Source: Planctomycetota bacterium (GTDB lineage Bacteria > Planctomycetota > B15-G4). From it: 64,000 nt of DNA. The stretch is taken from positions 828,665-892,664 of the forward strand of contig BQJR01000002.1 of the NCBI GenBank assembly GCA_021604805.1, given 5' to 3'. The translations under genes were made by a program, and so were the position numbers. Below are positions 20,225-33,962 of the stretch, one piece after another; the stretch's first letter is position 1; each line of letters begins with the position of its first letter. The notes under the pieces were generated by a model. The model ran no database searches, was not told the origin of the DNA, and saw only the letters and a program-made list of their open reading frames with translations.

Positions 20225-21148
20225 TCAGTCCTCGTGGAACGCTCCGGCCGCTTGGTCGGCGCTGAGCAACATCGTGATGAGTCGGTCACGATCTCGCGCG
20301 GAGTAGAAGCTCAGCTTCACCTCCCCGCGACCATCCTGCTCCGCAACCATCACCTTAGTTCCGTACAAGTTGCGCATTTTTTCCTCGTAATGCGACTTAT
20401 TGCCGAGCGGCTTGGGCGTCGCGGCTTTTCCCGAGCGAGCCGTAGCTGTCCCCGATCCACGTGGGGAGGTGGACCCTGACCGCGCGCTCGAAGGCGCGCC
20501 GGCCCCACGGACTCGGCGTTCGAGCTCACGCACGCTCAACTGATCGGTGACAGCCTCATCACCCAACCGCTCCCTCTCGGCTGGGTCACTCACACCAAGA
20601 AGCGTGCGGGCTTGGCCAGCGTTCAACAAGCCATCCGCCAGGTACTGCTTCAAGCTGGGTGGAAGCTCCAGGAGGCGCAGAGAATTCGAGATCACGGACC
20701 GACTTTTGCCCAGTCGGTCAGCGAGCTGCTGGTGAGTCATCTCAGAAGCCACCAGCAGATCTGAGAAGGCAAGCGCCTCCTCAAGGGGGCCGAGGTCTTC
20801 GCGCTGGATGTTCTCGATCAAAGCCATCTCGAGAACCGCAACGCCCTCTGCGTCCACAATCACAGCTGGGACAGCCTTGAGGCCCGCCTGGAGCGATGCG
20901 CGACAGCGCCGCTCCCCAGCGATCAGGTCGTAGGCGGCCCCCTTTTTCCGCACGACCACCGGCTGCAAGACCCCGTGCTGGCGAATCGACTGAGCCAACC
21001 CGGCAAGCGCCTTCTCATCGAAGACCTTGCGCGGTTGGTTCGGGTTGAAGCGGATCTCTGCGAGCAAGACCTCCTGCGTGGAGGTGTCATCCGGCCGAAC
21101 CGTGTTGGCGATGAGGCTGTCGAGCCCCCGACCCAGTCGTCGTTCCAT
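20225..21148 (-). CDS. parB: chromosome partitioning protein ParB
   Basis: A 307-residue ParB/Spo0J. The N-terminal CTP-binding domain has FNPNQPRKVFDEKALAGLAQSI and the GERRCRA box (78-84) followed by ENIQRED. The helix-turn-helix region includes THQQLADRLGKSRSVISNSLRLL, which binds parS. A Ser/Gly/Pro-rich linker (about 215-250) leads to the C-terminal dimerisation region. ATG 21148 has GGAG 8 bases upstream. Three parS sites lie directly upstream at 21209-21331. No parA gene is adjacent, which is unusual. It marks the origin-proximal domain, about 10 kb from dnaA. Confidence 0.96.
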   Translation of the reverse strand: MERRLGRGLDSLIANTVRPDDTSTQEVLLAEIRFNPNQPRKVFDEKALAGLAQSIRQHGVLQPVVVRKKGAAYDLIAGERRCRASLQAGLKAVPAVIVDAEGVAVLEMALIENIQREDLGPLEEALAFSDLLVASEMTHQQLADRLGKSRSVISNSLRLLELPPSLKQYLADGLLNAGQARTLLGVSDPAERERLGDEAVTDQLSVRELERRVRGAGAPSSARSGSTSPRGSGTATARSGKAATPKPLGNKSHYEEKMRNLYGTKVMVAEQDGRGEVKLSFYSARDRDRLITMLLSADQAAGAFHED

Positions 21149-21208: not shown

Positions 21209-21224
21209 CGTTTCACGTGAAACA
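21209..21224. promoter_or_regulatory. parS site 1
   Basis: CGTTTCACGTGAAACA matches the parS consensus TGTTTCACGTGAAACA at 15 of 16 positions and keeps the full core palindrome. ParB should load here. Confidence 0.93.
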
Positions 21225-21259: not shown

Positions 21260-21275
21260 GGTTTCACGTGAAACA
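21260..21275. promoter_or_regulatory. parS site 2
   Basis: GGTTTCACGTGAAACA matches parS at 15 of 16 positions. It starts 51 bases after site 1. Confidence 0.93.
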
Positions 21276-21315: not shown

Positions 21316-21331
21316 TGTTTCACGTGAAACA
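21316..21331. promoter_or_regulatory. parS site 3 (perfect)
   Basis: TGTTTCACGTGAAACA is an exact 16-base parS palindrome, 56 bases after site 2 and 11 bases from the stop of the HPr-fusion gene. Confidence 0.97.
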
Positions 21332-21342
21332 CCGACAGTCGC

Positions 21343-22641
21343 TCAAACTTTGATGCGCAGGTACCCGAGCTGCGGTGGCATTTGCACCCCGACCGACTCA
21401 CCGAGCCCGACCTCGAAGAGCGCTCGCACGTCCTCAAGCGAGCGCGCGTCGCCGCGGAACACGATCTCAGCGGGTGTCGGGTGCGCCCCCCCGAGCATGA
21501 TGAGGCTCATTAGGGAGCTTGCGGAACAGGCTTCACCCTCGATCTCAACCTCAAGTGGGGTGCCATGATGACGCGCGATCTGAACAATCAGCGCCAGCGG
21601 GCGGGCATGCAGAACGACCCCATCCGGAAGTGGGAGAGCGAGCGCGCGGTCGACCACGAAGGTGTCCAGGATCTGCTTGGCGGTGCTCGAACACCCCTCG
21701 ACATAGAGGTAGGCCTGGCGCAAGCAGACGTTCACGGCGATGTGCAAGACATCACCCTTGTCGACCACCCGGGAGATCAGCTCGCGGGCGACTTCATGCC
21801 TCAGATCGTTCTCATGGCGCTCGTAAAAGTGCACCAGGCCTGTCGCCATCTCCAAGAGATGCAAAGCGATTGATGTGTGGCCACGCAACACCAGAAGCCA
21901 ATCGTTCTCCTTCTCCAGCGCCGTTCCGAGCACATAGGTGTCGTACATCGACTGAATGTTGTGGACGGCAGACTCATACCAGCGGCAGCGATCCTCACTC
22001 GCGCGCTCGCGTACGAACTCGGTGAGCTCCTCTGAGGGCCGGATGGCTTCGAGCCCCAGCGAGCGACTTGCCTGCAACACGGCGAGGAAGCGCGCACCAA
22101 GCTGAGCGATGTGTTGGCGCTCATCATCCGCGAGGTCTGCATCGAGATCGCGGGGCAGCTGGCGCCGCAAGGCGACCGCGGGAACTGCGTACGCCTCCGT
22201 CACCTTCCAGGAGAGGCCCAGTTTCGAGGCCTCCGTGACAGCCTCAGCGGCAAGTCGGGCGATCGCACGGTCGAGGGTTGCGTGTGCAGACCCCAATTCA
22301 GCGACGAGTTCGAGGTTGTCTCGCGCGGTGGCGTAGCGTGGCAGCCGGCTGATCAGGTGTAGGCCGGTGGCCTTCACGAGGCCGAGACCGCGAAGCGAGG
22401 CGACGAGCTCGCCGAAGGTCACGAAGGCGCGATTCTGGCGCGCTCCGTAGTCATCCATGAACAGTTCAAGCGAGTTGGATCGCTCGCAGAAGTGCCCCAT
22501 GAAGCTGATCTGGCCAAGCACTGCGGGTTGGTCGATCAGAGCAATCAACTGCTCCCCAAATTCCTTCGTCGCATCCTGGAGGAGCGGGAGGAACTCATCC
22601 TCGCGGAGGATGGGGCGTCGAGACGTTTCGGTCTGCGTCAT
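21343..22641 (-). CDS. large protein with C-terminal HPr-like domain
   Basis: A 432-residue protein. The last 90 residues resemble the phosphocarrier HPr: VVLHARPLALIVQIARHHG carries the active-site-type histidine (H345, motif LHARP), SASSLMSLIMLGG matches the regulatory-serine region, and AEIVFRGDARSLEDVRALFE the final strand-helix. The first 330 or so residues are helical, soluble and unfamiliar to me. HPr domains accept phosphate from enzyme I of the sugar phosphotransferase system, or act as regulators; no enzyme I or EII gene is nearby, so a regulatory role is more likely. It sits directly upstream of the parS cluster and parB. The start is ATG 22641 with only a weak GGGA site. Confidence 0.75.
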   Translation of the reverse strand: MTQTETSRRPILREDEFLPLLQDATKEFGEQLIALIDQPAVLGQISFMGHFCERSNSLELFMDDYGARQNRAFVTFGELVASLRGLGLVKATGLHLISRLPRYATARDNLELVAELGSAHATLDRAIARLAAEAVTEASKLGLSWKVTEAYAVPAVALRRQLPRDLDADLADDERQHIAQLGARFLAVLQASRSLGLEAIRPSEELTEFVRERASEDRCRWYESAVHNIQSMYDTYVLGTALEKENDWLLVLRGHTSIALHLLEMATGLVHFYERHENDLRHEVARELISRVVDKGDVLHIAVNVCLRQAYLYVEGCSSTAKQILDTFVVDRALALPLPDGVVLHARPLALIVQIARHHGTPLEVEIEGEACSASSLMSLIMLGGAHPTPAEIVFRGDARSLEDVRALFEVGLGESVGVQMPPQLGYLRIKV

Positions 22642-22772: not shown

Positions 22773-23615
22773 ATGGGTGACCATGCGAAATCTTCATCAG
22801 ACATCACCATCGAGATCTATCTGCGTGAGATCAACCGCGTCAAGCTGTTGACCGCAGATGGAGAGAAAGAGCTCGCGAGGAAGGTGCAAGCCGGCGACAT
22901 GGCCGCCCGCGATCACCTCGCTCTCGCAAACCTCCGGCTCGTGGTGAGTATCGCGAAACGCTACATGCGTCGCGGATTGAGCCTGCTCGACCTCATCGAA
23001 GAGGGCAATGTGGGCCTGATGCGGGCGGTCGAGAAGTTCGACCCCGACGCGAACTGCCGCTTCTCGACCTACGCCACGTGGTGGATCAAGCAAGGCATCC
23101 GCCGAGCGCTCACCAACACGGTGAAGACGGTGCGAATCCCGTCCTACATGGTCGAGCTCATCACCCGCTGGCAGCGCACCACCGACCAGCTGCTGCTGCG
23201 CCTCGGACGCGAACCGGCCCCGGATGAGATCGCGGAGGTCATGGAACTCGACGCCAACGCCGCCGCCGCCGTTCAGGGCGCGCTCAACACCAACTCTCGC
23301 TACACGCAGTCCTTCGCCACAACCGATGACGAGAGCGGAAACCTCTCCGATGTGCTGGTCGACCCGAGCTCTCCTGACCCGCGCGCTCAGCTGCTCCAGT
23401 CCACAGAGCTGAACCGAATGCTGGAGCTCCTCGAGAACCTCGATGAGCGGCAGCGTCGAATCCTCCAGATGCGCTTCGGCCTCGGCTACGCTGACGGCAT
23501 GACCCTCAAGCAGATCGGGGCCGAACTCGGCCTCACTCGCGAGCGGGTCCGCCAGATTCAAAACGAGGCATTGGCTCGACTCTTCGCAGGCATGAGCGAG
23601 GGCGAGCCCGTCTAG
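22773..23615 (+). CDS. RNA polymerase sigma factor, sigma-70 group 2-like
   Basis: A 280-residue sigma-70 factor without region 1.1. Region 1.2 is [25 protein letters not shown]. Region 2 follows from [38 protein letters not shown] to [17 protein letters not shown], and region 4 ends [17 protein letters not shown], the -35 helix-turn-helix. It is close to RpoD/SigA in regions 2 and 4 but short, so a non-essential or stress paralogue is likely, though a primary factor cannot be excluded. The ATG 22773 lacks a clear ribosome site. It heads an eight-gene run with hemW 13 bases downstream, which hints at condition-dependent expression of that run. Confidence 0.92.
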
Positions 23616-25385: not shown

Positions 25386-26302
25386 CCACCCAGGCCTTCG
25401 CGGACCGCCTCGCCGACGCTGTGTTGAGCAAGCGCTCACCGCTCGTCGTGGGCCTCGACCCCTTCATTGATCGCATCCCTTTGGAGCTGCGCGAACAAGC
25501 CGCACGCGACCACGAAGACCCGCGCGCAGCGAGCGCGGCCGCCGCCCAGAGCTTCTTCGAATCCGTGCTCGAGGCCGTCGCGCCCTACGCCTGCGCGGTG
25601 AAACCGCAGAGCGCCTTCTTCGAGGGCTTCGGGCCCGCCGGATGCGTCGCGTGGGAACGCGTGGTTCAGCGCGCCCACGAGCTCGACTTGCTCGTGATCG
25701 GCGACATCAAGCGCGGCGACATCGGCAGCACGGCGCGCGCCTATGCCGACGCGCACCTCACCGGCCCGGCCGCTTGCGACGCCGTCACCTTGAACCCCTA
25801 CATGGGCAGCGATTCCGTGCTTCCCTTCCTCGAGGTCGCCGACCAAACCAGCGGGGGAGCCTTCGTTCTCGTGCGCACGTCGAACCCCTCGGCCGCGGAG
25901 CTGCAAGACCAAACCCTCGCGAAGGGCGCGCGCGTTCACGAACACGTGGCCGACCTGGTGGCGGGTTGGGGACGCGAGCGCGTGGGCACAAGCGGCTTCT
26001 CCAACGTGGGCGCCGTCGTCGGCGCGACGGCACCCGCCGAACTCACCGCACTCCGAGAGCGTCTCCCACACGCGTGGTTCCTCGTTCCGGGAGTCGGCGC
26101 GCAAGGCGCCTCGGCGCAGGACGTCGCCCCGGCTTTCGACGCTCGTGGACTCGGCGCCGTGGTGAATTCATCGCGCGGGATTCTCTACGCCTTCGGTGAC
26201 CCCAAAACGCGCGACTGGCGCAGCCCGATCGAGCAGGCTGCGCGCGACCTCGCCGCGCAACTCCGCGACGTCTCCACAGCACAGAGCTCGCCGCCGCGAT
26301 GA
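25379..26302 (+). CDS. pyrF: orotidine 5'-phosphate decarboxylase
   Basis: A 307-residue OMP decarboxylase that makes UMP in the last step of pyrimidine synthesis. It is the longer type 2 form. Substrate-site segments are VVGLDPFIDRIP, AVKPQSAFFE and the catalytic DIKRGDIGSTARAYA; the phosphate-binding end is VPGVGAQGA followed by NSSRGILYA. ATG 25379 overlaps the preceding stop by 7 bases, and its own stop overlaps the bshC start by 4 (ATGA). The upstream open frame to 25055 is not used. Confidence 0.95.
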   Translation: MVTTQAFADRLADAVLSKRSPLVVGLDPFIDRIPLELREQAARDHEDPRAASAAAAQSFFESVLEAVAPYACAVKPQSAFFEGFGPAGCVAWERVVQRAHELDLLVIGDIKRGDIGSTARAYADAHLTGPAACDAVTLNPYMGSDSVLPFLEVADQTSGGAFVLVRTSNPSAAELQDQTLAKGARVHEHVADLVAGWGRERVGTSGFSNVGAVVGATAPAELTALRERLPHAWFLVPGVGAQGASAQDVAPAFDARGLGAVVNSSRGILYAFGDPKTRDWRSPIEQAARDLAAQLRDVSTAQSSPPR

Positions 26303-27738
26303 TTCACCGCAGTCATGCGCCGCGCGTTCACGGCGAGTGGACCGCGCGCTGGTTCGCTGGCGACGCACAACTCACCGAGCTCTTCGGCCCCGCGCCAACG
26401 CTCGACGCGCTCGCAACACACGCGGCCACGATTCGCGCTGCGCCCGGTTGGACCTCGCTGCTCGAGCCGGAACCGGGCCCCGCGCTCGACAGCGACAGCC
26501 TCGTGGTCTTGGCCGGCCAGCAGCCCGTGTTGGCGGGGGGCGCTGCGCTCGTGGTGCACAAGGCCGTCACGGCCCTGGCCCTGGCCCGCGACCTGGCGAA
26601 GCGCGTGGACCGCCCTGTGGTGCCCGTGTTCCTGCTCGCCACGCAAGACGCCGACACCAGTGAAGTCGACCACGTCGATCTACTCGGCGAGCGCGATCAG
26701 ATCGTGCGCCTGCGATGTCCTGTACAACCCGCACAAGAGATGTTCGCGCGGGCGCACTGGGAGCGCACCGGCCTCCAGCGCGTGTTCGACGAACTCCGTC
26801 GCCGCGTGCCCGGCGCCGCGAAGCTACTGCAAGACCTGAAGCACGACGCCTCCGGCGGCGCCGCGCTCACCGACCACGTGCTCACGCTCCTGCGCAGGAC
26901 ACTCGGCCCGTTCGGTTTGCGCTTCGTTCAAGCCCACAAGCTCGCCGAAGTCGGTCGCCCAGTGCTCGACCTCGCGCTGAGCGATCATCGCGCGCACATC
27001 GCGCAGCTCGAGAGCGGCGCCGCTCGCCTCCGTGAGGCCGACCTGAAAGTGGCCTTCGACCCGCACGACCCGCGTCCGCTCGTGCTCGAATCGCGCGACG
27101 GTCGCCGCAAACGTCTCGAAGCCGACGACGAGCAAGCGCGCACTCGCCTGTCTCGGAGCCCCGGCGACTTCTCGCCCCACGCAGCGCTGCGACCCATCGT
27201 GCAGGCCGCCGCGCTGCCCGTCGTGGCGCAGGTCGCGGGGCCCTCCGAGATCCTTTACCTCGGCCAAGCTCGCGAGCTCCACGCGCTGCACGACCGCCGG
27301 CGACCGCTGCTCGTGCCGCGCATGGAAGCCACGCAGTTGAGCGCCGCGCAGTTCGAACACCTCGCGCCCGACTTTCGGCTCGAGCCCGAGGTGCAGGCCT
27401 ACGCGAACACTCGCGAGCAGCTGCTGGCCGACGCCGCCGTCTTCGCCCGCGAACTCCGCCAGGACGAGCCGCGCCTCGCCGTGCAGCTCGATCGCTGGCA
27501 ACAGCGCCTTCAGCGCGACCTTCAGCGCCTGGCGGCACAGCCATTCTGGGCGCAACGACAGCGCGGCGCTCTGAGCCAGGCGCTCGTTCCGCGCGGCCGC
27601 CCGCAAGACGCCGTGTTCGCGTGGCTGCCGCAGGCTTGGGGGCGCGGCGATCCGAGTGCATGGGTTGAGCAACTTCTCGACATGTCGCGCGGGCATGAGC
27701 CCCCGGTTCACTTGTTCCACCACCTCTCGGAGCGCTGA
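26299..27738 (+). CDS. bshC: bacillithiol synthase (cysteine-adding enzyme)
   Basis: A 479-residue BshC, the enzyme thought to add cysteine to glucosaminyl-malate as the last step of bacillithiol synthesis. Family hallmarks are LAGQQPVLAGGAALVVHKAVTALALA (nucleotide-like loop), PVFLLATQDADTSEVDH and VAGPSEILYLGQARELH. A long helical C-terminal part (RWQQRLQRDLQRL) matches the BshC coiled-coil dimerisation region. It is slightly shorter than the usual 530 or so residues. bshB and bshA follow directly, which makes the assignment firm. Confidence 0.9.
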   Translation: MIHRSHAPRVHGEWTARWFAGDAQLTELFGPAPTLDALATHAATIRAAPGWTSLLEPEPGPALDSDSLVVLAGQQPVLAGGAALVVHKAVTALALARDLAKRVDRPVVPVFLLATQDADTSEVDHVDLLGERDQIVRLRCPVQPAQEMFARAHWERTGLQRVFDELRRRVPGAAKLLQDLKHDASGGAALTDHVLTLLRRTLGPFGLRFVQAHKLAEVGRPVLDLALSDHRAHIAQLESGAARLREADLKVAFDPHDPRPLVLESRDGRRKRLEADDEQARTRLSRSPGDFSPHAALRPIVQAAALPVVAQVAGPSEILYLGQARELHALHDRRRPLLVPRMEATQLSAAQFEHLAPDFRLEPEVQAYANTREQLLADAAVFARELRQDEPRLAVQLDRWQQRLQRDLQRLAAQPFWAQRQRGALSQALVPRGRPQDAVFAWLPQAWGRGDPSAWVEQLLDMSRGHEPPVHLFHHLSER

Positions 27739-27741
27739 GAC

Positions 27742-28470
27742 ATGGCAGACGTGCTGGTCCTCGGCCCACACCCCGACGACATCGAAATCTGCGCGGGAGG
27801 CCTGGTTCTCTCCATGATCGCTCGCGGCTACAGCGTGGCGGGCGTGGACATGACCGCCGGCGAATCCGGCACGCGTGGCTCGCCCGAGGAGCGTCGCGCG
27901 GAGGCGCTGGAGGGCGGCCGCCGGCTCGGCTTGAGCGCGCGCGAGTGCCTGGGTTTGCCCGACGGCGGCCTCCAGAACGACAGCGCGTCGAGGGACTTGC
28001 TGATCAACGCGATCCGCAAGCACCGCCCGAGGCTGCTCGTCGCGCCCTATCCGATGGATCACCACCCCGACCACGCGCGCACCGGCGCACTCGCGAAGGA
28101 CGCACGCTTCCTCGCGGGCTGCGCACAGATCGGCCCGCAGGAACACGCCGCGTGGCGACCCGGCCGCGTGCTCTTCTACCCGTCGCGCGAGGTGCTCGAA
28201 CCCAGCCTGGTGGTCGACGTCACTGACGTGTTCGAGCAGAAGCTCGAGGCCGTGCGCGCACACCGCTCGCAGCTGCATCAACCGGCGTCGAACGAGCCGC
28301 GCACGACCATCTCGGCCGAGGGCTTCCTCTCAGAGATCGAGGCCCAGGCTCGAACCTACGGCGCACAAATCGGCGTGCGTTTCGGAGAAGCCTTCGTGGT
28401 GGACGGCCCGCTCGCCGTCGAGGATCCGCTGCCCGTGGTGCGCGACAAGGGTCAGAGTGTCTACCTGTGA
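27742..28470 (+). CDS. bshB1: bacillithiol pathway deacetylase (PIG-L family)
   Basis: A 242-residue zinc deacetylase of the PIG-L/LmbE family. The zinc-binding and catalytic motif PHPDDIE lies at residues 9-15, and HHPDHARTG supplies the third metal ligand. BshB removes acetate from N-acetylglucosaminyl-malate. It starts 3 bases after bshC and overlaps bshA by 4 bases (GTGA). The location between bshC and bshA supports bshB1 over other PIG-L deacetylases. Confidence 0.92.
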   Translation: MADVLVLGPHPDDIEICAGGLVLSMIARGYSVAGVDMTAGESGTRGSPEERRAEALEGGRRLGLSARECLGLPDGGLQNDSASRDLLINAIRKHRPRLLVAPYPMDHHPDHARTGALAKDARFLAGCAQIGPQEHAAWRPGRVLFYPSREVLEPSLVVDVTDVFEQKLEAVRAHRSQLHQPASNEPRTTISAEGFLSEIEAQARTYGAQIGVRFGEAFVVDGPLAVEDPLPVVRDKGQSVYL

Positions 28471-29603
28471 GCGCGCTCCGCATCGGCATCGCCTGTTACC
28501 CGACCTACGGCGGAAGCGGTGTGCTGGCCACCGAGCTGGGCCTCGCGCTGGCGGATCACGGACACGAGGTGCACCTGTTCAGCTACGCCCGGCCGACACG
28601 CCTCGCCGCGTTCCACAGCGGCATTCAGTTCCACAACGTCACCGTATCTTCCTACCCACTGTTCGAGTACCCACCCTACGACCTCGCGCTGTCCTCTGTG
28701 ATGCGCCAAGTGATGGCCGAGCGCGAACTCGATATCCTGCACGTGCACTATGCCGTGCCGCACTCCATGTGCGCATATGTTGCGCGTGAGATGTTGGGCA
28801 ATTGCCGCACCAAGATTGTGACAACCTTGCACGGCACCGACATCACGATCCTTGGGCGTGACCCGTCCTATCGCGATGTGATCCCCTTCGCGCTGCGCAA
28901 GAGTGACGCCGTGGTCTCGGTGTCGCAGTGGTTGGCCGACGAAACCCGCGCCGTCTTCGACTACGGCGGCAAGATCCACGTGCTGCCCAACTTCGTCGAC
29001 GAGACGCGCTTCTGCCCGCGCCGCGACGACCGCGTCCGCAACGAGCTCGGTGGCGACAAGCACCCGCTCGTGGTGCACATGTCAAACTTCCGCAGCTTGA
29101 AGCGCCCGATCGACGCCGTCGAAGCCTTCAACAAGCTCGACCGCAAGCACGGCGCGCGCCTCGTGCTCGTGGGTGAAGGCCCCGAGATGACGAACGTCCG
29201 CGAGCTCGTGTGCCGCTACGAGCTCGGCGACTCGGTGCTCTTCCTCGGCGCCATCGATGCCGTGGAAGACGTGCTCGCCGCCGCCGACGTGGCACTGTTC
29301 CCCACGGAGAGCGAGTCCTTCGGGCTCGCGGCCCTCGAGGCGCTCTCGAGCGCGGTGCCCGTGGTGGCCACGCAGGTCGGCGGCCTCCCAGAAGTCGTGG
29401 AGCACGGTGTGTGTGGCTTGTTGGCGCCCGTCGGCGACACCGACATGTTGGCGGCGCACCTCGACACACTGCTGAGTGACCGCACGAAGATCGCGCAGTT
29501 CGGCGCGGCTGGTCGCGAACGCGCCACGGAGCTCTTCTCCCTGAAGCGCAGCCTCCAGCAACACGAGGCGCTCTATGAAAGCCTCGTGGGCGCGCCGTGC
29601 TGA
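28467..29603 (+). CDS. bshA: N-acetylglucosaminyl-malate synthase
   Basis: A 378-residue GT-B glycosyltransferase that joins UDP-GlcNAc to L-malate, the first step of bacillithiol synthesis. The start IGIACYPTYGGSGVLATELG is diagnostic for BshA, as are TTLHGTDITILG and LPNFVDETRF. The C-terminal lobe has ESFGLAALEALSSAVPVVATQVGGLPEVV, the donor-binding E-x7-E region. GTG 28467 overlaps the bshB stop. Its own stop overlaps the next gene by 7 bases. With bshB and bshC the full known pathway is present. Confidence 0.95.
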   Translation: MSALRIGIACYPTYGGSGVLATELGLALADHGHEVHLFSYARPTRLAAFHSGIQFHNVTVSSYPLFEYPPYDLALSSVMRQVMAERELDILHVHYAVPHSMCAYVAREMLGNCRTKIVTTLHGTDITILGRDPSYRDVIPFALRKSDAVVSVSQWLADETRAVFDYGGKIHVLPNFVDETRFCPRRDDRVRNELGGDKHPLVVHMSNFRSLKRPIDAVEAFNKLDRKHGARLVLVGEGPEMTNVRELVCRYELGDSVLFLGAIDAVEDVLAAADVALFPTESESFGLAALEALSSAVPVVATQVGGLPEVVEHGVCGLLAPVGDTDMLAAHLDTLLSDRTKIAQFGAAGRERATELFSLKRSLQQHEALYESLVGAPC

Positions 29604-30739: not shown

Positions 30740-31107
30740 CAACCGCGCGCGCGGGGCTTTGTGTTCGTCATCGTGCACGACTCTGCACATCCACCGTGGA
30801 GAGCCGTTGACAGATCGTACGCGCGCGAGAATCATGGCTCGCCTCTCGCAGTTGGTTGAGTGCGCGCTTCGGCTGTTGTCGGTTCCGAAACGCGTGGGTC
30901 AGGTGCACCGGCATGGTCAGCTGGTGCGAGTCAGAGCGCGCAGTGCGCATGCAGGTTCGAGGCGGCGCGGAGTGGTCGCACGGGCCTCGCAGGAATCAGG
31001 GAGGAGCGCTTAGCGGAGGGCCCAAAGCCCCAAGCTTTGCGAAGAGTCCGTACCGAGATCTCTCGTGGCGGCGGTTGAGTAGACGCAGATGCACAAGTGG
31101 AGCGACG
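30740..31107. other. 368-base region upstream of dnaA
   Basis: This gap between the desulfurase and dnaA contains no supported gene. Visible elements are a TTGACA hexamer at 30807-30812, with a weak AATCAT 17 bases later (30830-30835), a plausible dnaA promoter. There are also weak DnaA-box-like words GACGGATAA (30731-30739) and ACATCCACC (30787-30795), each only 6 of 9 matches to TTATCCACA or its complement. It is a secondary candidate for origin function. Confidence 0.35.
30807..30835 (+). promoter_or_regulatory. possible dnaA promoter
   Basis: A perfect -35 TTGACA is followed after 17 bases by AATCAT, a weak -10. It lies about 270 bases before the dnaA start. Confidence 0.3.
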
Positions 31108-32496
31108 ATGAGCCTCGCGGAATCCCAAGCACCTCTCGGAAGTGGCGACCAACCCGCCCAGGACGCTGATCAGGATCCGTTGCGCGCTTACCTGCGCGGC
31201 TTGGTCAGTCCGCGCAAGTTCGAACTCTGGTTCTCGACGATCCAGATCGTCGACAGCACGAGCGATCCCGTGATCGTGTCCTTGGGCAACGACTTCCTGT
31301 GCGAATGGGTGGCTCGGAACTACCTCGACGAGGTGCACGAAGGCGTGGCCGAATGCCTCGGCCAGCCGCGCCGGGTCGAGTTCAGCGTGGACTCGCTCGC
31401 ACGACCGGCTCCGCCGCAGCCGCAGCGCGACTCGGGCGAGCGCAACCGCGACTACTTCATCAGCAACTCCGACGTCGGGCTCAACCCGCGATACACCTTC
31501 GACAACTTCATCGTGGGCCCGAGCAACCAGCTCGCGCACGCCGCGTCGGCGGCTGTCGCTGAGGCACTCGCCGGCTCGTACAACCCGCTCTTCGTGCACG
31601 GCAGCGTGGGCCTCGGCAAGACCCACCTGCTGCAGGCGATCTGCCACAAGGCGATGGCCTCGAAGCGCTCCCTGAAGGTGCTCTACCTGTCGAGCGAGAC
31701 CTTCGTGAACCAGTTCATCGCCTCGATCGAGAAGGGCGACTTGGAGCGCTTCCGGTACCGCTACCGCAACGTGGACATGCTCGTCGTCGACGACATCCAG
31801 CTGCTGGCGCACAAGGAGCGCACCCAGGAAGAGTTCTTCCACACCTTTAATGCGTTGCACAACGCCGAGCGCCAGATCGTGCTCGCCAGCGACAGCCCGC
31901 CCGACGAGATCCCGACGCTGCGTGAACGACTGAGCAGTCGCTTCAAATGGGGTTTGGTCGCGCAGGTGGCTCCGCCGCGCTTCGAAACGCGCCAGGCGAT
32001 CCTGCGTCGCAAGGCGCTCGACCGCGGCGCCGAACTCCCGCCCGAGGTGCTGAACTTCCTGGCCGAGAACATCGACAGCAACATTCGTGAGCTCGAGGGC
32101 GCCGTCACCAAGGTGCTGGGTTACGCGCAGCTGATCGGTGGATCGATCGACGTGGGCATGGCCCGCGATGCCCTCGGCACGAGCGCCAGCAGCTCCGCCA
32201 CGCGGGCCGTCACCGGCGTGGAGCGCATCCAGGAAGTGGTCTGCGAGCACTTCGGCGTGAAGATCTCCGATCTCCAAGGGCGCCGCCGCACCCAGTCGAT
32301 CGCGCTGCCGCGCCAGGTCGCCATGGCGCTCGCGCGCCGCCTCACGGCGCTTTCGCTGGAAGAGATCGGCGGACGCTTCGGCGGGCGCGACCACTCCACC
32401 GTGCTCTACGCCGTGTCGCGCATGAAAGACCGCGCCGAACGCGACCCCTCGTTCCGCAGCCTGCTCACCGAGCTCCAGGACAAGGCGCAGCGCTGA
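31108..32496 (+). CDS. dnaA: chromosomal replication initiator DnaA
   Basis: A 462-residue DnaA. Domain I (about 20-95) is followed by a short domain II. The AAA+ domain III has YTFDNFIVGPSNQLAHAA, Walker A HGSVGLGKTH (164-173), Walker B MLVVDDIQLL and the LSSRFKWGL sensor/arginine region. Domain IV ends with the DnaA-box-binding signature GRDHSTVLYAVSRM. ATG 31108 matches the family start; the frame is open far upstream but that sequence has no DnaA similarity. dnaN, dciA and gyrB follow on the same strand. Confidence 0.97.
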   Translation: MSLAESQAPLGSGDQPAQDADQDPLRAYLRGLVSPRKFELWFSTIQIVDSTSDPVIVSLGNDFLCEWVARNYLDEVHEGVAECLGQPRRVEFSVDSLARPAPPQPQRDSGERNRDYFISNSDVGLNPRYTFDNFIVGPSNQLAHAASAAVAEALAGSYNPLFVHGSVGLGKTHLLQAICHKAMASKRSLKVLYLSSETFVNQFIASIEKGDLERFRYRYRNVDMLVVDDIQLLAHKERTQEEFFHTFNALHNAERQIVLASDSPPDEIPTLRERLSSRFKWGLVAQVAPPRFETRQAILRRKALDRGAELPPEVLNFLAENIDSNIRELEGAVTKVLGYAQLIGGSIDVGMARDALGTSASSSATRAVTGVERIQEVVCEHFGVKISDLQGRRRTQSIALPRQVAMALARRLTALSLEEIGGRFGGRDHSTVLYAVSRMKDRAERDPSFRSLLTELQDKAQR

Positions 32497-32861: not shown

Positions 32862-33962
32862 ATGAAACTCGAAACACCACGCGACCTCTTCCTGACCCAC
32901 CTGCAGGCAGCCGCCTCGGTGTGCCCCACGCGCAGCACGCGTCCGATCCTCACGGATGTCTTGGTGAGCGTTGAGGGACAGCGCGTAGAGATCACCGCGA
33001 CCGATGGCGAGATCACCGTTCGCCGCAGCTACGAGCACGAAGGCGTTTCAGGCGAGGGGCAAGCCGCGCTGCCAGCGGGCACGCTGCTCTCTGCCGTGCG
33101 CTCCATGACTTCCGACACGCTCAGCCTCGAGCCGCAGGGCGGCGCGCACGAGCTCACCGGCGGCAAGGCCTACTTCAAGCTGCAGGGTGACGATCCTGAG
33201 CTGTTCCCCGCCGTGCCCGAGGTGAACGCCGAGCGCGGCCTCGAGTTGCCGCTGGGTGACTTCGTGGGGCTCTGCCAGCGCACGATGTTCGCGGCGGCGC
33301 GCGAGATGGGCCGCTACGCGTTCAATGGCGTGCTGCTCGAGGTGGATCCGAAGGAGCTCACGCTGGTTGCCACCGATGGCCGTCGTCTGTCGAAGGCGGC
33401 TTTGGCTGTCGACACCGGGGTGACCGAGCGCTTCAGCGTGGTCGTGCCGCTCAAGGGGCTCCAGCAACTGCAACGTCTGGGCGCATCCGACGACACCCAG
33501 CTGCGCATCGAGTTCCGCCAGACTTTGGTGGCCTTCTCGGTGCCCGGAACCGAGGTGCGCGCGCTGCTCGTGGAGGGCGAGTTCCCCGACTTCCGCGCCG
33601 TGATGCCCAAGGAAGCCGACGTCCCGTCCACAGTCACCGTGGATCGGCAAGAGCTCGCGGGCGCCATCCAGCGCGCCACGATCACGGCCGGCGATGAAGG
33701 GCCCGCCGTGGCGCTCTCGCTCAGCGCCGGCAGCTTGCGCGTGGCGTCACGCCAGGAGGGATTGGGCGAGTCACGCAGCGACCTGGTCGTCGACTACTCG
33801 GGAGACGACGTCGAGATCCGCTTCAACCCACTGTTCCTGGGCGAGTACCTCAAGACCATGCCAGAGACCCAAGTGACCTTCCGCTTCAAGGATCGTGCTT
33901 CGGCAGGCCTGTTCAGCTCGCAGGAGAGTTCGGTCTACGTGGTCATGCCGATCACGTCCTGA
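32862..33962 (+). CDS. dnaN: DNA polymerase III beta subunit (sliding clamp)
   Basis: A 366-residue beta clamp. It begins with a helix and has the three-repeat clamp layout: THLQAAASVCPTRSTRPILTDVLVSV, then MFAAAREMGRYAFNGVLLEVD with ATDGRRLSKAAL, and ends SVYVVMPITS, like the M-P-M/I-R-L end of other clamps. It encircles DNA and holds the polymerase. Position after dnaA is the classic order. The ribosome site (GAAAGGGAAAG) is imperfect. Confidence 0.97.
   Translation: MKLETPRDLFLTHLQAAASVCPTRSTRPILTDVLVSVEGQRVEITATDGEITVRRSYEHEGVSGEGQAALPAGTLLSAVRSMTSDTLSLEPQGGAHELTGGKAYFKLQGDDPELFPAVPEVNAERGLELPLGDFVGLCQRTMFAAAREMGRYAFNGVLLEVDPKELTLVATDGRRLSKAALAVDTGVTERFSVVVPLKGLQQLQRLGASDDTQLRIEFRQTLVAFSVPGTEVRALLVEGEFPDFRAVMPKEADVPSTVTVDRQELAGAIQRATITAGDEGPAVALSLSAGSLRVASRQEGLGESRSDLVVDYSGDDVEIRFNPLFLGEYLKTMPETQVTFRFKDRASAGLFSSQESSVYVVMPITS

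What the first reader, a model, noticed from the sequence alone, without database searches (positions are those of the whole stretch)
21343..22641. HPr-like domain fused to a 330-residue unknown domain next to parS
The C-terminus keeps the LHARP histidine motif (H345) and the serine region of HPr, but the protein is five times longer than HPr and has no PTS enzymes nearby. The gene ends 11 bases from a perfect parS and sits just before parB. This could be a signalling protein linking carbon or energy state to chromosome segregation. The segregation link is speculation from position only.
Basis: partly seen in the sequence, partly recalled or inferred. Interest (0 to 1): 0.65.

Follow-up and report, generated by a model that had tools for sequence, protein, structure and literature searches.

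The report
HPr-tailed planctomycete protein beside parS
A family of planctomycete proteins, found in at least 20 families of the phylum, ends in an intact phosphate-carrier (HPr) domain joined to a large, confidently predicted helical domain of unknown kind; its place next to the chromosome-partition gene is a by-product of conserved gene order around the replication origin, not evidence that it acts in chromosome segregation.

Summary
The 432-aa ORF is real: 74 full-length homologues align, from 20 planctomycete families. Its tail is a genuine HPr domain: Pfam E=1.3e-6, predicted HPr fold against solved HPr (TM 0.83, rmsd 1.7 A), and H345/R347/P348 invariant in 74/74. Residues 1-329 form a confident all-helical domain (pLDDT 94) with no Pfam, NCBIfam or PDB-fold relative. 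It carries a conserved His/Arg/Asp-rich face.

ParB lies within 7 kb in 48 of 48 tested loci of the main form. Unrelated genes are nearly as constant (HemW 44/48, PyrF 41/48, sigma factor 47/48), so this is conserved gene order near the origin. In a long form (five families) ParB is near in 0 of 9 loci, over 1.4 Mb away in two single-contig genomes. One relative has lost the gene while keeping parB, parS and the sigma gene.

Best reading: an undescribed PTS effector, fed by the genome's EI/HPr/EIIA-Ntr chain (encoded elsewhere), whose HPr tail senses phosphorylation state for a novel helical effector domain. The target is unknown.

The parts
21343..22641 (-). hprX (working name): 432-aa protein, novel helical domain plus C-terminal HPr domain
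   Evidence: ORF; 73 full-length homologues aligned with it at 23-57% identity; AF2 pLDDT 94.4, pTM 0.91
21655..22641 (-). N-terminal all-helical domain (residues 1-329), no known family or fold match
   Evidence: AF2 pLDDT 94.3, pTM 0.92; no Pfam or NCBIfam family, no PDB sequence or fold match
21394..21654 (-). HPr-fold domain (about residues 330-416)
   Evidence: Pfam PF00381 E=1.3e-6; profile vs PDB HPr 3le5 E=1.1e-12; Foldseek 3lnw_A TM 0.83, rmsd 1.7 A
21607..21609 (-). codon of H345, the HPr active-site histidine (His15 equivalent)
   Evidence: invariant 74/74 with R347 and P348
21514..21516 (-). codon of S376, position of HPr Ser46
   Evidence: Ser in 62/74, Thr in 3
21316..21331 (.). 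parS, perfect TGTTTCACGTGAAACA, 11 bp past the hprX stop
21260..21275 (.). parS, one mismatch
21209..21224 (.). parS, one mismatch
20225..21148 (-). parB (chromosomal), downstream and codirectional; neighbour, not part of the same system
   Evidence: Pfam ParB_N E=1.7e-30 and HTH_ParB E=2.5e-30
22773..23615 (+). divergent sigma-70-family factor, best NCBIfam score RpoS-like but below cut-off; neighbour
   Evidence: near hprX in 47/48 short-form loci

Best explanation
HprX is a PTS effector. SHOWN by sequence and prediction: its tail is an HPr domain with the complete phosphorylation motif, its first 329 residues are a separate helical domain, and the genome carries EI, a stand-alone HPr and an EIIA-Ntr. 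INFERRED: EI, with PEP, phosphorylates H345 (possibly reversibly via HPr). The phosphorylation state, which follows the PEP/pyruvate balance, changes how the HPr tail sits on or communicates with the helical domain. That domain then does the output, by binding a ligand or partner or by catalysis in a polar core lined by D63, N70, H95, R99, R220, H227, Q230, D234, R253, H261, H271, R275 and H276. The output target is unknown. Proximity to parB reflects origin-region gene order.
For: HPr fold and motif. H345, R347 and P348 invariant in 74/74 although overall identity falls to 23%, which is unlikely if the site were unused. The helical domain has its own set of near-invariant polar residues lying on one face of helices 216-236 and 247-279 by heptad spacing (my reading). 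EI is found above cut-off in 26 of 29 probed genomes, 28 of which carry HprX, and in 53 of 58 relatives. EI, HPr and EIIA-Ntr/rpoN are in the own genome. HprX tails form one clade apart from stand-alone HPrs (support 100/100), consistent with a single old fusion. High pTM (0.91) suggests a fixed domain arrangement.
Against: No phosphorylation data. EI is nearly universal in the phylum, so co-occurrence is uninformative. No IIA, EI or other PTS partner domain is fused or adjacent. G173 and G050 show HprX without a clear EI; for G050 this is probably assembly incompleteness, since same-genus G088 and G149 have EI.
Confidence: 0.5

Rival explanations
1. HprX links carbon or energy state to chromosome segregation by acting on ParB/parS or ParA.
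For: ParB lies within 7 kb, downstream and codirectional in 47 of 48 short-form loci. In the window's own family the two genes are 53-200 bp apart in most members, with parS between or beside them. In one long-form genome (L144) a ParA-like gene lies just upstream of hprX.
Against: Equally constant neighbours with no known segregation role (HemW 44/48, PyrF 41/48); dnaA, dnaN and gyrB are 8-12 kb away, so it is origin-region order. 0/9 long-form loci keep ParB; distances are 1.48 and 1.41 Mb in G310 and G330, 134 kb in G134. G386 lost hprX but keeps parB-parS-sigma. An opposite-strand phosphoesterase gene separates the two in many families, so no ancestral operon.
Confidence: 0.07
2. HprX controls the divergent RpoS-like sigma factor, in the manner of E. 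coli HPr acting through the anti-sigma factor Rsd.
For: The sigma gene is near in 47/48 short-form loci, usually head-to-head. In E. coli HPr binds Rsd and interferes with its anti-sigma activity (PMC6904343).
Against: HprX persists where this sigma factor is absent: G310, G330, G134 and G208 give only 38-39% RpoD-type hits. The sigma factor persists without HprX in G386. The helical domain has no fold or sequence match to Rsd in PDB.
Confidence: 0.1
3. The helical domain is an enzyme or phosphotransfer module that passes phosphate between H345 and a second histidine (such as H261, H271 or H276) or a small molecule, so that HprX is a catalyst rather than a regulator.
For: Clustered near-invariant His, Arg, Asp and Glu residues in the helical domain.
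Against: No known enzyme fold matched; no substrate clue from a conserved neighbour across both forms.
Confidence: 0.2
4. The HPr tail is only a structural or protein-binding relic and is never phosphorylated.
For: Crh in Bacillus is an HPr relative that lost the active-site histidine and still functions (established knowledge). The long form carries about 83 extra residues right behind the Ser46 helix.
Against: His, Arg and Pro of the active site are invariant 74/74, including in the long form.
Confidence: 0.1

Closest known systems
HPr (PTS phosphocarrier, PF00381 / TIGR01003)
   Same: Fold, HARP motif, Ser46 position, GLGE end of the domain
   Different: Embedded at the C-terminus of a 432-aa protein; scores 31.6 bits against the NCBIfam family cut-off of 47.9; a separate ordinary HPr is in the genome; forms its own clade
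HPr-containing multiphosphoryl transfer proteins (FruB/FPr, DhaM type)
   Same: HPr domain fused to a larger protein, often at the C-terminus (PMC2405797)
   Different: Those carry IIA and/or EI domains; here no such domain is found in 74 members
HPr-Rsd regulatory pair of E. coli (PDB 4xwj)
   Same: HPr plus a helical partner; a sigma factor gene next door
   Different: Two separate proteins in E. coli; no detectable relation of the helical domain to Rsd; the sigma partner is not obligate
ParABS chromosome partition system
   Same: Shares the neighbourhood
   Different: HprX has no ParA, ParB or Noc domain and parts from parB in five families

Membership tests
HPr / PTS phosphocarrier domain | HPr open-faced beta-sandwich fold | tested here: met
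   AF2 plus Foldseek: 3lnw_A TM 0.83, rmsd 1.7 A, probability 1.00
HPr / PTS phosphocarrier domain | Active-site His15 with Arg17 and Pro18 | tested here: met
   H345, R347, P348 invariant in 74/74
HPr / PTS phosphocarrier domain | Above curated family score | tested here: inconclusive
   Above Pfam cut-off (28.8 vs 23); below NCBIfam TIGR01003 cut-off (31.6 vs 47.9)
HPr / PTS phosphocarrier domain | Phosphorylation by EI and PEP | not testable with these tools
   EI present in the genome
HPr / PTS phosphocarrier domain | Regulatory Ser46 phosphorylated by HPr kinase (only in HPrK-bearing bacteria) | tested here: not met
   Ser position kept in 62/74, but no HPrK above cut-off in 58 relatives
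Multiphosphoryl transfer protein (IIA/EI-HPr fusions) | Fused IIA or EI domain | tested here: not met
   No such Pfam domain in 74 members
Rsd-type anti-sigma factor | Rsd/AlgQ sequence or fold | tested here: not met
   No Pfam hit; not among PDB sequence hits nor the 50 best fold matches
Rsd-type anti-sigma factor | Binding to a sigma factor | not testable with these tools
   Needs pull-down
ParABS component | ParA, ParB or Noc domain, or parS binding | tested here: not met
   Pfam finds only PTS-HPr; parS binding itself not testable
ParABS component | Linkage to parB beyond regional synteny | tested here: not met

The most novel reading that the evidence does not exclude
A previously undescribed PTS effector family, ancestral in much of Planctomycetota, in which an HPr domain regulates a helical domain of new fold with a polar active or ligand site: a PTS output of a type not seen in the systems compared here.
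Probability: 0.45. Interest if true: 0.6.

Novelty: new variant of a known kind. Interest (0 to 1): 0.42.

Why it matters
[quoted passage not shown] What the phosphorylation chain does in such bacteria is an open question. A conserved HPr-tailed protein in at least 20 families is a concrete candidate output, testable with one phosphorylation assay. Showing that its parB position is regional synteny also warns against reading function from neighbours near the origin.

Tried and rejected
(1) Segregation link from gene position: rejected as the default by the synteny control, the long-form loci and the G386 loss. (2) Dedicated regulator of the divergent sigma factor: lowered because each occurs without the other. 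(3) HPr-kinase control through S376: no HPrK above cut-off. (4) Fold identity of residues 1-329: Foldseek against PDB with the full model and with the domain alone, and against viral models with the full model, gave only weak low-probability helical matches apart from HPr. (5) The Krumholzibacteriia locus L007 is a chance match; no hit with the 74-row profile. (6) Defence-system role: no PADLOC hit. (7) Promoter and terminator scans uninformative. (8) GC skew of the window is weak and does not place the origin by itself. (9) Literature: nothing found on this protein or on planctomycete ParB linkage in the held library.

Full report
WHAT IS THERE. The ORF at 21343-22641 (-) encodes 432 aa. Its only Pfam domain is PTS-HPr at residues 344-399, E=1.3e-6, above the curated cut-off. 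Three parS sites lie in the 194 bp between it and parB: two with one mismatch and one perfect. They are the only parS in the 4.47-Mb assembly at up to two mismatches. The stop of the gene is 11 bp from the perfect site. dnaA (the ORF at 30856-32496), dnaN (32862-33962) and gyrB (from 34302) lie about 8-12 kb away, so this is the neighbourhood of dnaA and presumably the origin.

FAMILY. A profile search of 392 Planctomycetota genomes found full-length relatives in families coded f1, f2, f3, f10, f19, f27, f32, f34, f36, f38, f40, f49, f56, f59, f63, f69, f70, f71, f75 and f95 (the f2 and f49 sets include copies cut by contig ends). 74 sequences were aligned. Two forms exist: a short one of about 430-450 aa, and a long one of about 511-526 aa with some 83 extra residues directly after the Ser46 helix of the HPr domain (f34, f40, f70, f75, f95). 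A scan of GTDB genome contigs found only planctomycete relatives plus one chance hit; that scan reaches close relatives only.

HPr TAIL. H345, R347 and P348 are invariant in 74/74; S376 is Ser in 62 and Thr in 3. The tail of the AF2 model (pLDDT 94.4, pTM 0.91) matches solved HPr structures (3lnw_A TM 0.83, rmsd 1.7 A, probability 1.00), and the profile finds PDB HPr sequences at E=1.1e-12. HprX tails form one clade apart from seven stand-alone planctomycete HPrs (few columns, so inner forks are unsure).

HELICAL DOMAIN. Residues 1-329 are predicted with pLDDT 94.3 and pTM 0.92 as all helices. No Pfam or NCBIfam model matches more than a few stray members, and weakly, no PDB sequence is related (best was a designed helical bundle), and Foldseek against PDB gives nothing with E<=0.001; the best-ranked matches are spurious alignments to long helices with TM-scores below 0.25 on the query. 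Near-invariant residues include F17, D63, N70, H95, E216, R220, H227, Q230, S231, Y233, D234, E243, R253, S257, H261, H271, E274, R275 and H276. By heptad spacing these line one face of the helices at 216-236 and 247-279, which suggests a buried polar site.

PTS CONTEXT. The genome has EI (L149 7437-9395) and, on another contig, a 101-aa HPr next to an EIIA_2 protein, an S30AE-family hibernation-factor homologue and rpoN, a PTS-Ntr-type cluster. No HPr kinase is above cut-off here or in 57 relatives. EI is above cut-off in 53 of 58 relatives and in 26 of 29 further probed genomes, 28 of which carry HprX.

IS THE parB LINK REAL? In 48 short-form loci with at least 6.5 kb on both sides, ParB is within 7 kb in 48, SigX in 47, HemW in 44, PyrF in 41, and a TPR protein on the far side of ParB in 40. 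The whole block is conserved, so adjacency to ParB carries little information. Where hprX has moved (long form), ParB is near in 0 of 9 loci, and 1.48 Mb, 1.41 Mb and 134 kb away in three single-contig genomes. In G386 the gene is gone while ParB, three parS-like sites and the sigma gene remain in order. An opposite-strand phosphoesterase gene sits between hprX and parB in most of the 33 loci (of 48) that have it, so the tight arrangement in the window's family is probably derived.

THE SIGMA NEIGHBOUR. The divergent gene is a sigma-70-family factor whose best NCBIfam score is RpoS, below cut-off. E. coli HPr acts on the anti-sigma factor Rsd (PMC6904343), which makes this a natural lead. But HprX exists without this sigma factor (G134, G208, G310, G330) and the sigma factor without HprX (G386).

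CONCLUSION. The protein is real, old and widespread in Planctomycetota, with an intact HPr domain and a domain that no library used here recognises. The most likely mechanism is a PTS-phosphorylation-controlled effector of unknown target. The segregation idea rests on gene order that affects all genes of the region alike.

Noticed in passing
26299-29603: Bacillithiol biosynthesis genes bshC, bshB1 and bshA in a row next to the origin region, conserved in gene order in many of the loci (BshB1 and BshA above NCBIfam cut-off, BshC below).
   Followed up: partly
22773-23615: RpoS-like sigma factor gene, usually divergent from hprX; a possible target of HPr-type control but not obligate.
   Followed up: yes
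L144:8371-11137: In one long-form genome a ParA-family ATPase gene lies directly upstream of hprX on the same strand, and a glycogen-debranching-type gene (isoamylase/alpha-amylase domains) is close by; unexplained.
   Followed up: partly
L146:3492-10140, L147:8283-13825: Genes that look like alpha-glucan or amylase enzymes flank hprX in two f70 genomes. E. coli HPr also binds glycogen phosphorylase (PDB 9s8b), so a carbon-storage link is conceivable.
   Followed up: no
L148:8902-11051: hprX overlaps a CYTH-domain gene on the same strand in G134.
   Followed up: no
L046:11980-13957: Seven parS sites strung over 2 kb upstream of and into parB in one f3 genome.
   Followed up: no
L095, L100, L119, L123 and others: ParA lies several kb from ParB, on the other side of the hprX-sigma-HemW-PyrF block, in families f32, f56 and f63, so parA and parB are split around this block.
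   Followed up: partly
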